Shown one piece after another: positions 22,840 through 59,595 of a stretch of DNA of 64,000 nt. The translations under genes and the position numbers were made by a program. Origin of the DNA: Lutibacter sp. GTDB lineage: Bacteria > Bacteroidota > Bacteroidia > Flavobacteriales > Flavobacteriaceae. The stretch's first letter is position 1; every line of letters starts with the position of its first letter. The notes under the pieces are model-generated. The model searched no databases. It saw only the letters and a list, made by a program, of their open reading frames with translations, and was not told the DNA's origin. The stretch covers positions 62,001 through 126,000 of the forward strand of contig DAIDMK010000002.1 of assembly GCA_027449025.1 (NCBI GenBank). The letters run 5' to 3'.

Positions 22840-22968
22840 ATGAAACGCCAGAACCAAGACAAGCTTAAATACAAAAAAATTACCGACGTTCCATCTGACC
22901 TATTAAAAAAATTAAAAGCTTCAGATGAAACGAGCACAACAAATTTTGATACACAACGGAATGATTAA
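22840..22968 (+). CDS. Small hypothetical ORF whose 3' end lies in the 88-bp repeat
   Basis: An ATG four bases after the TPR stop, with AATTAAAAG in front, opens a 42-residue frame. Its first 26 residues are basic (MKRQNQDKLKYKKITDVPSD) and unique. From about residue 28 the frame runs into the first copy of the 88-bp repeat, which supplies the last 15 residues and the stop codon in a frame not used by the repeat's own ORF. This suggests an older small gene interrupted by the repeat. I do not recognise the protein, and it may not be functional. Confidence 0.35.
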   Translation: MKRQNQDKLKYKKITDVPSDLLKKLKASDETSTTNFDTQRND

Positions 22969-23188
22969 TGGCGAACTGCATCTGTTACCGCTAAAAAATA
23001 AAATTTAAACAGATGAAACGAGCACAACAAATTTTGATACACAACGGAATGATTAATGGCGAACAGCATCTGTTACCGCTAAAAAATAAAATTTAAACAG
23101 ATGAAACGAGCACAACAAATTTTGACACAGATAGGAATGATTAATGGCGAACAGCATCTGTTACCGCTAAAAAATAAAATTTAAACAG
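22925..23188 (+). repeat. Three head-to-tail copies of an 88-bp element
   Basis: Units at 22925-23012, 23013-23100 and 23101-23188 are nearly identical. Each starts ATGAAACGAGCACAACAAAT and ends AAATTTAAACAG. The next 88-bp phase point is the ATGAAA start of the DUF4292 gene at 23189. Within each unit CATCTGTT can pair with AACAGATG spanning the next start, for example 23155-23162 with 23184-23191. A 27-codon ORF (MKRAQQIL...) fills each unit. Further copies lie at 55836-55923 (minus) and 58362-58449 (plus). Confidence 0.95.
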
Positions 23189-23965
23189 ATGAAATATTAT
23201 TTTAAAATAACGATATTGATGTTGCTTGCACTCTCTTCGTGCAAAAGCAAAAAAAGTTTGACAAATATGGAAGGTATTGAAAATATTTCCACAAAAAAAA
23301 TAATAAGCAACCACTACGACAATAATTTCAACCAGAAAACGGTGAATGCCAATTTAAATGCCAAATATTCCGACAATAAAATGTCAACATCTGTCAACAT
23401 AAAACTGCGCATAGAAGTGGATAAAACCATTTGGATGAGCGCCACAAAGTTGGGATTTCCTTTGGCGAAAGTTAAAATTACACCAAACCGGGTAAGCTAT
23501 TACGAAAAAATTAGAGGCACCTATTATGATGGAGACTTTTCTATGTTAAGTAAATGGCTAGGGACAGAATTGGATTATCAAAAAGTTCAAAATATTTTAT
23601 TGGGACAAGCAGTTTTAAATTTAAAAAGAGATAAATATGATTCTAAAATAGACAATCGATTGTACCAATTATCGCCAATAAAACATAATGATTTGTTTGG
23701 TATTTTGTTTTTTTTGAATCCGGATAATTTCAAATTAAACCGACAAGAAATTACCAATACTGCAAAACAACAAATGCTTTCTGTATCCTACGCAAACTAT
23801 AAAAACATTAAAGGGGAACAGTTCCCAGAAAACATCAATATAAGAGCGACAGATCACGATAATTTAACCACCATCAATATAGAATATAAGTGGGTTGAAT
23901 TCAATGAAAAATTAACGTTTCCATTTGAAATTCCAACTGGTTACAAAGTAATTAGTTTAAAATAA
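23189..23965 (+). CDS. DUF4292 outer-membrane-associated lipoprotein
   Basis: The protein has 258 residues. The lipoprotein signal MKYYFKITILMLLALSSC has its lipobox cysteine at residue 18, followed by a Lys-rich start. The body (ARYSDNK/VNIKLRIEVDKTIWMS, then PLAKVKITPNRVSYYEKIRG) resembles the half-barrel of LolA/LolB-like lipid carriers that DUF4292 has been compared with. The stop overlaps the start of the EnvC-like gene (TAATG), so the two are translationally coupled. Its ATG is at the exact boundary of the third 88-bp repeat, so its original leader has been displaced and the start codon lies in a possible hairpin. Confidence 0.85.
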   Translation: MKYYFKITILMLLALSSCKSKKSLTNMEGIENISTKKIISNHYDNNFNQKTVNANLNAKYSDNKMSTSVNIKLRIEVDKTIWMSATKLGFPLAKVKITPNRVSYYEKIRGTYYDGDFSMLSKWLGTELDYQKVQNILLGQAVLNLKRDKYDSKIDNRLYQLSPIKHNDLFGILFFLNPDNFKLNRQEITNTAKQQMLSVSYANYKNIKGEQFPENINIRATDHDNLTTINIEYKWVEFNEKLTFPFEIPTGYKVISLK

Positions 23966-55835: not shown

Positions 55836-55923
55836 CTGTTTAAATTTTATTTTTTAGCGGTAACAGATGCTGTTCGCCATTAATCATTCCTTTGTGTATC
55901 AAAATTTGTTATGCTCGTTTCAT
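55836..55923 (-). repeat. 88-bp element, fourth copy (inverted)
   Basis: On the minus strand the copy begins ATGAAACGAGCATAACAAAT at 55923 and ends AAATTTAAACAG. The next ATGAAA lies exactly 88 bases on, at 55835. Its CATCTGTT and following AACAGATG are intact, so the hairpin is conserved. Unlike the tandem copies, it has TAA as the fifth codon. The following ATGAAA opens only 13 codons before a stop beside the end of the Lrp gene, so any target gene has decayed. Confidence 0.92.
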
Positions 55924-58361: not shown

Positions 58362-58449
58362 ATGAAACGAGCATAACAAATTTTGCTACACAAAGGAATG
58401 ATTAATGGCGAACAGCATCTGTTAGCATATAAAAATAAAATTTAAACTG
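58362..58449 (+). repeat. 88-bp element, fifth copy
   Basis: It begins ATGAAACGAGCATAACAAAT and ends AAATTTAAACTG. The start codon of the cystathionine enzyme gene (ATGAAA at 58450) is exactly 88 bases from the element's own ATG. CATCTGTT is present, but the partner is AACTGATG, giving one mismatch in the 8-bp stem. It has TAA as its fifth codon, as in the inverted copy. Confidence 0.94.
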
Positions 58450-59595
58450 ATGAAATTTAATACAAAAACCATCCACGGAAATCAAGCACACGACCCTTCA
58501 ACCGGAGCGGTTATGCCACCAATATATCAAACTTCAACTTACGCCCAAAGTTCACCTGGCGTTCACAAAGGTTATGAATATTCAAGAACTGCAAATCCAA
58601 CACGCACTGCGGTTGAAAATGCTTTTGCTAGTATTGAAAATGGGGAATTCGGACTCGCATTTGGTTCTGGTTTGGCCGCCATTGATTGTGTAATGAAATT
58701 GTTGAGCCCGGGAGATGAGGTAATTTCCACCAATGATTTATATGGAGGCTCTTATAGAATATTCACAAAAATATTCGAAAATTATGGTATCAAATTTCAT
58801 TTTATAGGAATGGAAAATGTGGCTAATATTGAACATTATATCTCTGAAAAAACAAAATTAATTTGGGTTGAAACGCCTACCAACCCTATGATGAATATCA
58901 TTGATATTGTAGCGGTTTCAAAGGTTGCTAAAAAACATCAAATTTTATTGGCGGTGGACAATACTTTTGCAACGCCTTATTTGCAAAATCCATTAAACCT
59001 GGGTGCCGATATTGTGATGCATTCGGCAACAAAATATTTGGGAGGGCACTCAGATGTGGTGATGGGCGCTTTAGTGGTGATTGATAATGATCTCGCCGAT
59101 AAATTATATTTCATTCAAAATTCATGCGGTGCTGTTTGCGGACCAATGGACAGTTTTTTGGTGTTAAGAGGTATAAAAACTTTGCATGTACGCATGCAAC
59201 GCCATTGTGAAAATGGTAAAGCGGTGGCTGAATATTTGGCAAAACACCCGAAAATTGAAAAAGTATATTGGCCTGGATTTGAAAATCATCCAAACCACGA
59301 CATCGCCAAAAAACAAATGAAGGATTTTGGCGGAATGGTTTCTTTCGTTACCAAAGGAAACGACATCAAAGACGCTTTTAAAATATTAGAAAACTTAAAA
59401 CTATTCACTTTGGCCGAATCACTGGGTGGTGTTGAATCTTTGTCGGGTCATCCAGCAAGTATGACTCATGCATCTATTCCAAAAGCCGAACGTGAAAAAA
59501 CAGGCGTGGTGGATTCATTAATACGGTTAAGCGTAGGGATCGAAGATATAGAAGATTTGTTGGCCGATTTAGACCAAGCCCTAAATTTAATTTAG
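58450..59595 (+). CDS. Cystathionine gamma-synthase/lyase family PLP enzyme
   Basis: The protein has 381 residues of the Cys/Met-metabolism PLP family. PPIYQTSTYAQSSPGVHKGY and YSRTANPTRTAVENAFASIE open the protein, MHSATKYLGGHSDVVMGALV carries the PLP lysine, and SLGGVESLSGHPASMTHASI and RLSVGIEDIEDLLADLDQAL end it. Gamma-synthase (MetB) and gamma-lyase (MetC/CTH-like) cannot be separated confidently here. Its ATGAAA lies at the end of the fifth 88-bp element, so its leader is made of that element. The 3' end overlaps the convergent barrel gene by 9 bases. Confidence 0.92.
   Translation: MKFNTKTIHGNQAHDPSTGAVMPPIYQTSTYAQSSPGVHKGYEYSRTANPTRTAVENAFASIENGEFGLAFGSGLAAIDCVMKLLSPGDEVISTNDLYGGSYRIFTKIFENYGIKFHFIGMENVANIEHYISEKTKLIWVETPTNPMMNIIDIVAVSKVAKKHQILLAVDNTFATPYLQNPLNLGADIVMHSATKYLGGHSDVVMGALVVIDNDLADKLYFIQNSCGAVCGPMDSFLVLRGIKTLHVRMQRHCENGKAVAEYLAKHPKIEKVYWPGFENHPNHDIAKKQMKDFGGMVSFVTKGNDIKDAFKILENLKLFTLAESLGGVESLSGHPASMTHASIPKAEREKTGVVDSLIRLSVGIEDIEDLLADLDQALNLI

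What the first reader, a model, noticed from the sequence alone, without database searches (positions are those of the whole stretch)
22925..23191. A precise 88-bp element that lands on ATGAAA start codons
The window contains five copies of one sequence: three tandem (22925-23188), one inverted (55836-55923) and one at 58362-58449. All have the same length, ATG to ATG, with no variation. Each begins ATGAAACG, and ATGAAA recurs immediately after it. The ATGAAA after the third tandem copy is the start of the DUF4292 lipoprotein gene, and the one after the fifth is the start of the cystathionine enzyme gene. This looks like a short mobile sequence that targets ATGAAA and duplicates it, becoming the 5' leader of the gene it hits. 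Tandem copies would arise when it inserts into itself or by unequal exchange at the duplicated hexamer. I know of no described element that specifically targets start codons in this way.
Basis: partly seen in the sequence, partly recalled or inferred. Interest (0 to 1): 0.88.

Follow-up and report, generated by a model that had tools for sequence, protein, structure and literature searches.

The report
Tiny mobile DNA at start codons
A roughly 88-letter piece of DNA has spread through many bacteria of one large group by inserting itself in one direction, mostly exactly in front of the start signal of genes, and it carries an inner stretch that matches its own end and that start signal.

Summary
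The five copies are real. The genome, a Lutibacter-like draft, has at least 57 copies spanning 84 or more of 88 positions. The element is mobile: of 60 orthologous gene starts newly fetched from relatives, 22 are occupied and 36 empty; where leaders align, it lies exactly between native leader and start codon. It belongs to a wide superfamily: 74 of 199 genomes of its family, 25 of 395 of its class. Of 206 distinct copies, 183 are followed by ATGAAA. Of 154 distinct sites, 142 are ORF starts, against 46% among extragenic ATGAAA. The peptide frame is not conserved. Conserved instead are an inner guide whose three variable bases are complementary to the element's last three in 189 of 208 copies, and, across subfamilies, a hairpin. 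This resembles the guide-plus-hairpin ends of IS200/IS605 and REP elements, but no cognate transposase was found. Rfam and the listings of nine full-text searches showed nothing like it.

The parts
22840..22924 (+). diverged 85-bp unit of another subfamily, first unit of the array; guide CATCTG, end CAG
   Evidence: profile E 0.003 over its right half only
22925..23012 (+). 88-bp element, tandem copy 1
23013..23100 (+). 88-bp element, tandem copy 2 (query copy)
23067..23072 (+). inner guide CATCTG of copy 2, reverse complement of the 3' junction CAG|ATG
   Evidence: covariation
23098..23103 (+). 3' junction CAG|ATG of copy 2 (end of one unit, start of the next)
23101..23188 (+). 88-bp element, tandem copy 3, abutting the DUF4292 gene
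23189..23965 (+). DUF4292 lipoprotein gene whose ATGAAA start abuts copy 3
55836..55923 (-). 88-bp element, single copy; the ATGAAA behind it is not a gene start
58362..58449 (+). 88-bp element, diverged single copy (end CTG, one base off the guide), abutting the Cys/Met PLP-enzyme gene
58450..59595 (+). Cys/Met metabolism PLP-dependent enzyme gene; its start is empty in L059 and L061, has a tail in L060, another insert in L063, and two other units in L068

Best explanation
It is a non-autonomous miniature mobile element, mostly 87-91 bp, that inserts immediately 5' of ATGAAA, mostly at gene starts, and so becomes the leader of the gene. Shown: presence/absence at orthologous sites, insertion point, orientation relative to the ATGAAA, tandem arrays, wide distribution. 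Supported by covariation: an inner hexamer (CATGTG, CATCTG, CATTTG or CATATG) complementary to the last three bases of the element plus the following ATG (CAC, CAG, CAA or CAT, then ATG), and, less strongly and across subfamilies, a subterminal hairpin (7 pairs, columns 5-11 with 52-58 of alignment A4). Inferred: read on the other strand, the element is target TTTCAT, a left end of about 30 nt, the guide CANATG, a hairpin, and a terminal TTTCAT. That is the order of a guide-plus-hairpin IS200/IS605 or REP end, so the element is probably cut and joined as single-stranded DNA by a Y1/HUH-type enzyme acting in trans, the guide picking both its own end and the target CAT. Tandem arrays follow because its own terminal TTTCAT is again a target. 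Gene starts prevail because insertion there keeps the start codon and, where genes overlap, the upstream stop (ATGA), whereas insertion inside genes would be lost.
For: Orthologous sites: 69 rows in seven gene sets, 31 occupied, 36 empty, 1 degenerate, 1 cut by a contig end; 9 of the 31 occupied are the reference copies chosen because occupied, so 22 occupied and 36 empty of 60 newly fetched; plus the Cys/Met gene. Copies followed by ATGAAA: 183 of 206 (the start was sought near the expected end, ATG preferred). ORF starts: 142 of 154 distinct sites versus 264 of 570 extragenic ATGAAA in 1.16 Mb. Guide/end: of 208 copies with a CANNTG in place, 189 have guide bases 4-6 complementary to the last three bases, shuffled mean 93, maximum 113 of 1000; CTG/CAG 107, GTG/CAC 78, TTG/CAA 3, ATG/CAT 1. 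Outside the family 5 of 7 copies with a proper end match, one of them CATATG with CAT|ATG (L473). Two helices on 27 representatives: 86% of cells paired versus 16-42% when slid; cells changed on both sides and covariation score reached by 0 of 500 shuffles. Near-identical dispersed copies (identity 0.96-0.99) in G126, G163, G200 and G233 of 15 genomes compared. Genomes with at least 8 copies have Y1_Tnp in 15 of 21, others in 58 of 178 (Fisher p 0.0012; six thresholds tried, p 0.0012 to 0.048); IS110 does not go with copy number (8 of 21 versus 50 of 178, p 0.45), IS91 weakly (3 of 21 versus 7 of 178, p 0.07). Guide-directed cleavage-site choice in IS200/IS605 and one REP system: passages of PMC6006769 and PMC8266576.
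Against: No transposase with these ends: neither half of the element matched any of 59 Y1 loci fetched (best E 0.61 and 1; capped lists, not all Y1 genes). Only 1 of 30 loci of the RAYT-type search (some are fragments) has a copy, and the three RAYT flanks read carry another palindrome. Six genomes with at least 8 copies have no Y1_Tnp match (G044, G108, G148, G179, G206, G226), and the only Y1 match of G233, which has near-identical copies, holds a stop. The Y1 link is not corrected for phylogeny; copy counts are lower bounds. In one search, two of five measures do not exceed shuffles (pairs changed on both sides 195 of 500, pair types 222 of 500); the representatives were picked by arm type and the structure was read from them, which favours it, and copies of one subfamily are not independent. 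RNAalifold finds no helix on A3 and only the guide helix on A4. DNA folds of seven single copies: z -0.09 to -1.31 for six, -3.86 for one. In Lutibacter many guides read CAGCTG, which breaks the pair with the A of ATG. L258 suggests target duplication. A replication-strand test could not be made. No excision product was seen.
Confidence: 0.45

Rival explanations
1. A mobile element of the same anatomy, moved by an enzyme of another class (for example a DEDD/IS110-type recombinase with a bridge-like RNA, or a tyrosine recombinase), in which the inner segment pairs with the joined ends of a circle.
For: In the AACATCC subfamily the inner GGATGTTACATGTG is complementary, bar one mismatch, to the joined ends CAC|ATGAAACATCC. 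No Y1 match in six high-copy genomes; only a broken one in G233.
Against: IS110 genes are not enriched in high-copy genomes and have no match in G126 and G233, which hold near-identical copies. IS91 genes occur in only 10 of 199 genomes. Tyrosine recombinases were not tested.
Confidence: 0.34
2. A cis-regulatory RNA leader: the inner hexamer pairs with CAC|AUG and hides the start codon, giving regulated translation; copies spread as a regulon.
For: The same covariation; position directly before ORF starts; RNAalifold on A4 predicts this helix and no other.
Against: Presence varies between close relatives at the same gene. Tandem arrays and near-identical copies at different places. 12 of 154 distinct sites have no ORF. 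No Rfam match at the element. It may still be a side effect of the insertion.
Confidence: 0.13
3. A family of repeated small genes (27-aa peptide) multiplied in front of genes.
For: The three tandem window units have an open 27-aa frame ending 4 nt before the next ATG.
Against: The consensus frame stops after 4 or 5 codons; 117 of 208 copies stop within the first seven codons, and lengths of 87-91 bp shift the frame.
Confidence: 0.02
4. Host recombination only: unequal exchange and gene conversion at ATGAAA microhomology, with no dedicated enzyme.
For: Tandem arrays of near-identical units; tail-only remnants (L360, L060).
Against: It would not readily give single insertions at unrelated genes with flanks preserved, nor guide/end covariation.
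Confidence: 0.06

Closest known systems
IS200/IS605 ends and their miniature derivatives (Y1/HUH, single-strand transposition)
   Same: Hairpin near one end; guide lying 5' of the hairpin foot on one strand and complementary to the end; fixed short target.
   Different: One hairpin and one guide for both ends; target TTTCAT/ATGAAA, mostly at gene starts; no full-length element with these ends in 59 Y1 loci.
REP sequences and REPtrons (TnpA_REP/RAYT), including Bacteroidetes subclass 2.6 with 'atypical' structures (PMC6006769, passages seen)
   Same: Short, many copies, weak hairpin plus guide, thought to be moved in trans; Bacteroidetes.
   Different: No GT[AG]G or CGTC tag in the consensus; fixed orientation and abutment on start codons; RAYT loci here are not flanked by it (1 of 30). 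Whether the 'atypical' structures listed in that paper's supplement include this element could not be checked.
MITEs
   Same: Small non-autonomous mobile element.
   Different: No terminal inverted repeats by eye; any target duplication cannot be told from the element's own end at most sites.
Intergenic TAACTGA repeats in Beggiatoaceae (PMC4679880, search listing and start of abstract only)
   Same: Intergenic repeats thought to act on gene expression.
   Different: A 7-base direct repeat, not an 88-bp element with a guide.

Membership tests
IS200/IS605-derived miniature element | shares its ends with a full-length element that encodes TnpA_Y1 | tested here: not met
   left and right halves of the profile against 59 fetched Y1 loci: best E 1 and 0.61; not all Y1 genes were fetched
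IS200/IS605-derived miniature element | guide 5' of a hairpin foot, complementary to the end (cleavage site) | tested here: met
   guide/end; hairpin beside it: weak in the commonest subfamily; cleavage itself not shown
IS200/IS605-derived miniature element | inserts 3' of a fixed short target without target duplication | tested here: inconclusive
   empty sites fit, but both ends read ATGAAA, so the cut is ambiguous; L057 and L152 favour it, L258 does not
IS200/IS605-derived miniature element | single-stranded circular intermediate, lagging-strand bias | not testable with these tools
   GC-skew sampling of five genomes gave no usable origin/terminus in most
REP / REPtron | GT[AG]G or CGTC tag at the hairpin foot | tested here: not met
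   consensus, read by eye
REP / REPtron | copies flank a TnpA_REP (RAYT) gene | tested here: not met
   1 of 30 loci from the RAYT-type search has a copy (L436, the same place as L057)
REP / REPtron | copy number goes with presence of a Y1 gene | tested here: inconclusive
   15 of 21 versus 58 of 178, p 0.0012, but six high-copy genomes lack Y1
MITE | terminal inverted repeats | tested here: not met
   termini ATGAAAC... and ...AAACAC/G are not inverted repeats (by eye)
Rfam cis-regulatory RNA | match to a curated family | tested here: not met
   window: none at gathering cut-off; ten loci: two weak matches below their cut-offs, both in L168 at 648-767, outside the element at 1501-1589
IS110 derivative | goes with IS110 genes | tested here: not met
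   8 of 21 versus 50 of 178, p 0.45

The most novel reading that the evidence does not exclude
A Bacteroidia-wide class of mobile element whose natural target is the translation start (ATGAAA), chosen by an inner guide that pairs with both its own end and the start codon, moved by an enzyme not yet tied to any known element, and giving genes a ready-made leader.
Probability: 0.4. Interest if true: 0.9.

Novelty: new variant of a known kind. Interest (0 to 1): 0.8.

Why it matters
Insertion of mobile DNA exactly at start codons, in one orientation and at scale, is not something I know of in bacteria. It turns one element into the leader of many unrelated genes and may change expression without breaking coding sequence. 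The guide/end covariation gives a direct test of target choice: change the guide and ask whether end and target change. A guide that selects start codons would also be a tool for placing leaders before genes.

Tried and rejected
Peptide-coding repeat: rejected, the frame is not kept. Known RNA family: none at the element. Plasmids: no match; phages: one weak match in two pieces, E 0.9. Y1 gene with the same ends: none in 59 loci. RAYT as cognate enzyme: one adjacency only. IS110 and IS91 as partners: not supported. Consensus RNA structure on alignment A3: none; RNA folds of seven single copies gave z -3.24 (L046) and -2.04 (L062) for two, -0.97 to +0.09 for five. Replication-strand bias: not measurable. 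Literature: nine searches (two of them on RAYT and IS608) showed no paper on such an element in the rows listed (up to 15 each, out of as many as 3,794 papers); only titles, abstract starts and the passages were seen. bioRxiv and most subscription papers are not held.

Against the reading: at npd all 8 empty sites read ATGGAA or ATGGAG while the 4 occupied ones read ATGAAA; at dapA 6 of 8 empty sites read ATGATA, one ATGAGA, one ATGAAA, while the 4 occupied ones read ATGAAA. Either ATGAAA arose first or insertion changed the start.

Dropped rows and choices: one search matched eight gene pieces in 38 genomes; I fetched 60 places of seven genes in close relatives and left out nadK and the rest. 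In one search, 3 of 15 'short' cases are units of other subfamilies, so 12 remain non-gene; 2 of 206 had no start found. In one search, some unit borders are misplaced (left hexamers such as ATAACA; the end of L226), so left-hexamer counts are not used. In one search, background genes are ORFs of at least 100 aa but sites count as genes from 50 aa, so the contrast is somewhat inflated; the stretches were mostly chosen around copies, with places at copies masked. I did not test systematically for copies inside genes.

Full report
1. What is there. The window lies in a 3.34-Mb draft genome (G000). Five 88-bp copies are present as described, and a diverged unit (22840-22924) heads the tandem array. 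The own genome has 63 matches, 57 of them spanning at least 84 of 88 positions, with arrays of up to five units. In a search of 40 genomes, own included, 20 of the 25 of the same genus match at E<=0.001, with none listed in five of them and up to 53 in one; of 15 others one matches weakly (G031, 4.4e-4).

2. Where it sits. I collected 206 distinct copies from fetched loci; 183 are followed by ATGAAA and 201 by ATGA. After setting aside units followed by another unit and merging repeated sites, 142 of 154 distinct sites have an ORF of at least 50 aa (or open to the locus end) starting at that codon. The other 12 have none, among them the minus-strand copy in the window. In 1.16 Mb of background (stretches of five other genomes of the family, the window and four Lutibacter loci), with copies masked, ATGAAA occurs 264 times at possible starts, 306 times elsewhere between genes and 1479 times inside genes. 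So starts are favoured about twofold over other extragenic ATGAAA, with the caveat on gene-size cut-offs given under Tried and rejected.

3. It moves. I compared seven gene starts across Lutibacter relatives (69 rows): 31 occupied (9 of them the reference copies), 36 empty, one degenerate, one cut by a contig end. Examples: asd is empty in G002 (...AAAAAATAAATAA|ATGAAAGTA) and occupied in G000 (...AAAAAATAAATAG, element, ATGAAAGTA). tlpA is empty in G346 (...TTTAAATAAAGAA|ATGAAAAAATAC) and occupied in G009 (...TTTAATTAAAGAA, element, ATGAAAAAATAC). At coaD the upstream frame's TGA overlaps the ATGA in occupied G001; the element's own ATGA keeps that stop. The Cys/Met gene is empty in L059 and L061, occupied in the window, carries a 21-bp tail in L060 and another short insert in L063. 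In Mangrovimonas aestuarii (L068) two other units stand at the same gene start. Near-identical dispersed copies occur in four of 15 genomes compared, on two to nine copies each.

4. What is conserved. The 27-aa frame is not: the consensus stops after 4 or 5 codons, and 117 of 208 copies stop within the first seven. Two pairings are. First, bases 4-6 of an inner hexamer CANNTG are the reverse complement of the last three bases of the element in 189 of 208 copies; shuffling gives 93 on average and 113 at most. All four combinations occur (CTG/CAG 107, GTG/CAC 78, TTG/CAA 3, ATG/CAT 1). The guide's CAT faces the ATG that follows, although 31 copies of the AACGAGC type, and some others, read CAGCTG, which breaks one pair. 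Second, seven bases after the leading ATGA pair with seven bases just before the guide: for example AACATCC with GGATGTT, AACTTCC with GGAAGTT, AATGAGC with GCGAATT. On 27 representatives both helices together pair in 86% of cells (guide helix 100%, hairpin 74%), versus 16-42% when slid; covariation score and cells changed on both sides are reached by 0 of 500 shuffles, but the numbers of pairs changed on both sides and of pair types do not stand out (reached by 195 and 222 of 500). These counts follow subfamilies, so independent events are fewer than copies. The commonest subfamily (AACGAGC with GCGAACA) keeps only part of the hairpin, and RNAalifold predicts the guide helix alone.

5. How wide. 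With a sequence profile of the element, 74 of 199 genomes of the family match at E<=0.001. Of 395 genomes of the class, 25 match at E<=1e-4, in the own family and 12 other family labels. Of nine loci read there, seven (L466, L469-L474) abut the ATGAAA of an ORF of at least 130 aa; two of these are the same gene in one genus label. The two others (L467, L468) lack a proper right end. In 5 of those seven the guide bases 4-6 match the end, in L471 and L474 they do not.

6. How it may work. Read on the strand opposite to the gene, the order is target TTTCAT, about 30 nt, guide CANATG, hairpin, terminal TTTCAT. Passages of PMC6006769 and PMC8266576 describe, for IS200/IS605 ends and REPs, a guide just 5' of a hairpin foot that selects the cleavage site by base pairing. 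On this view the gene-side hexamer is the kept target and the far-side ATGAAAC is the element's own end. L057 (GTGAAA) and L152 (TTGAAA) fit; L258, with TTGAAA on both sides, does not; most copies cannot tell. The enzyme is not identified. Y1 genes are commoner in genomes with at least 8 copies (15 of 21 versus 58 of 178), while IS110 is not. But no fetched Y1 locus carries the element's ends (59 loci), RAYT loci are not flanked by it (1 of 30), six high-copy genomes lack Y1, and in G233 the only Y1 match is broken. I hold mobility and target as shown, the guide/end pairing as well supported, the hairpin as supported across subfamilies, and the HUH mechanism as a working model.

7. Known or new. 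It fails defining tests of REPs (tag, flanking of RAYT genes), of IS200/IS605 derivatives (shared ends, among loci fetched) and of MITEs (terminal inverted repeats), while working most like the first two. The listings of nine searches of the open-access library showed no such element, which is weak evidence of absence. PMC6006769 mentions Bacteroidetes RAYTs flanked by 'atypical' structures with copies elsewhere in the genome; I could not open the table that lists them, so overlap with known sequences remains possible.

Noticed in passing
L328, L350, L351, L356, L365, L368, L037 (inside element copies): Several Lutibacter copies carry an inserted palindrome of the CCTGCCGGCAGGCAGG type at about GCGAAC^AGCA, so a second short repeat has inserted into the first at nearly one point.
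   Followed up: no
L452, L437, L438: RAYT-like Y1 genes of Lutibacter are flanked by a different palindrome, GAAGTCGGGAGACTTCG or near it, perhaps their own REP.
   Followed up: no
L063:1962-2044: At the Cys/Met gene start another 83-bp insert starting ATGAAATAAGC and ending TTTAAATCAG stands before ATGAAA; it has no clear guide.
   Followed up: partly
L360 and L060:7142-7162: Tail-only remnants (AATTTAAACAG; 21 bp) at sites that are empty or occupied in relatives, perhaps footprints of loss.
   Followed up: no
L190:4291-4322: Only the first 32 bases of an element, then unrelated sequence: a truncated copy or a longer element.
   Followed up: no
G161:C1, near 2.30 and 2.37 Mb: Five RAYT-like Y1 genes in two clusters spaced about 1.5-2 kb apart.
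   Followed up: no
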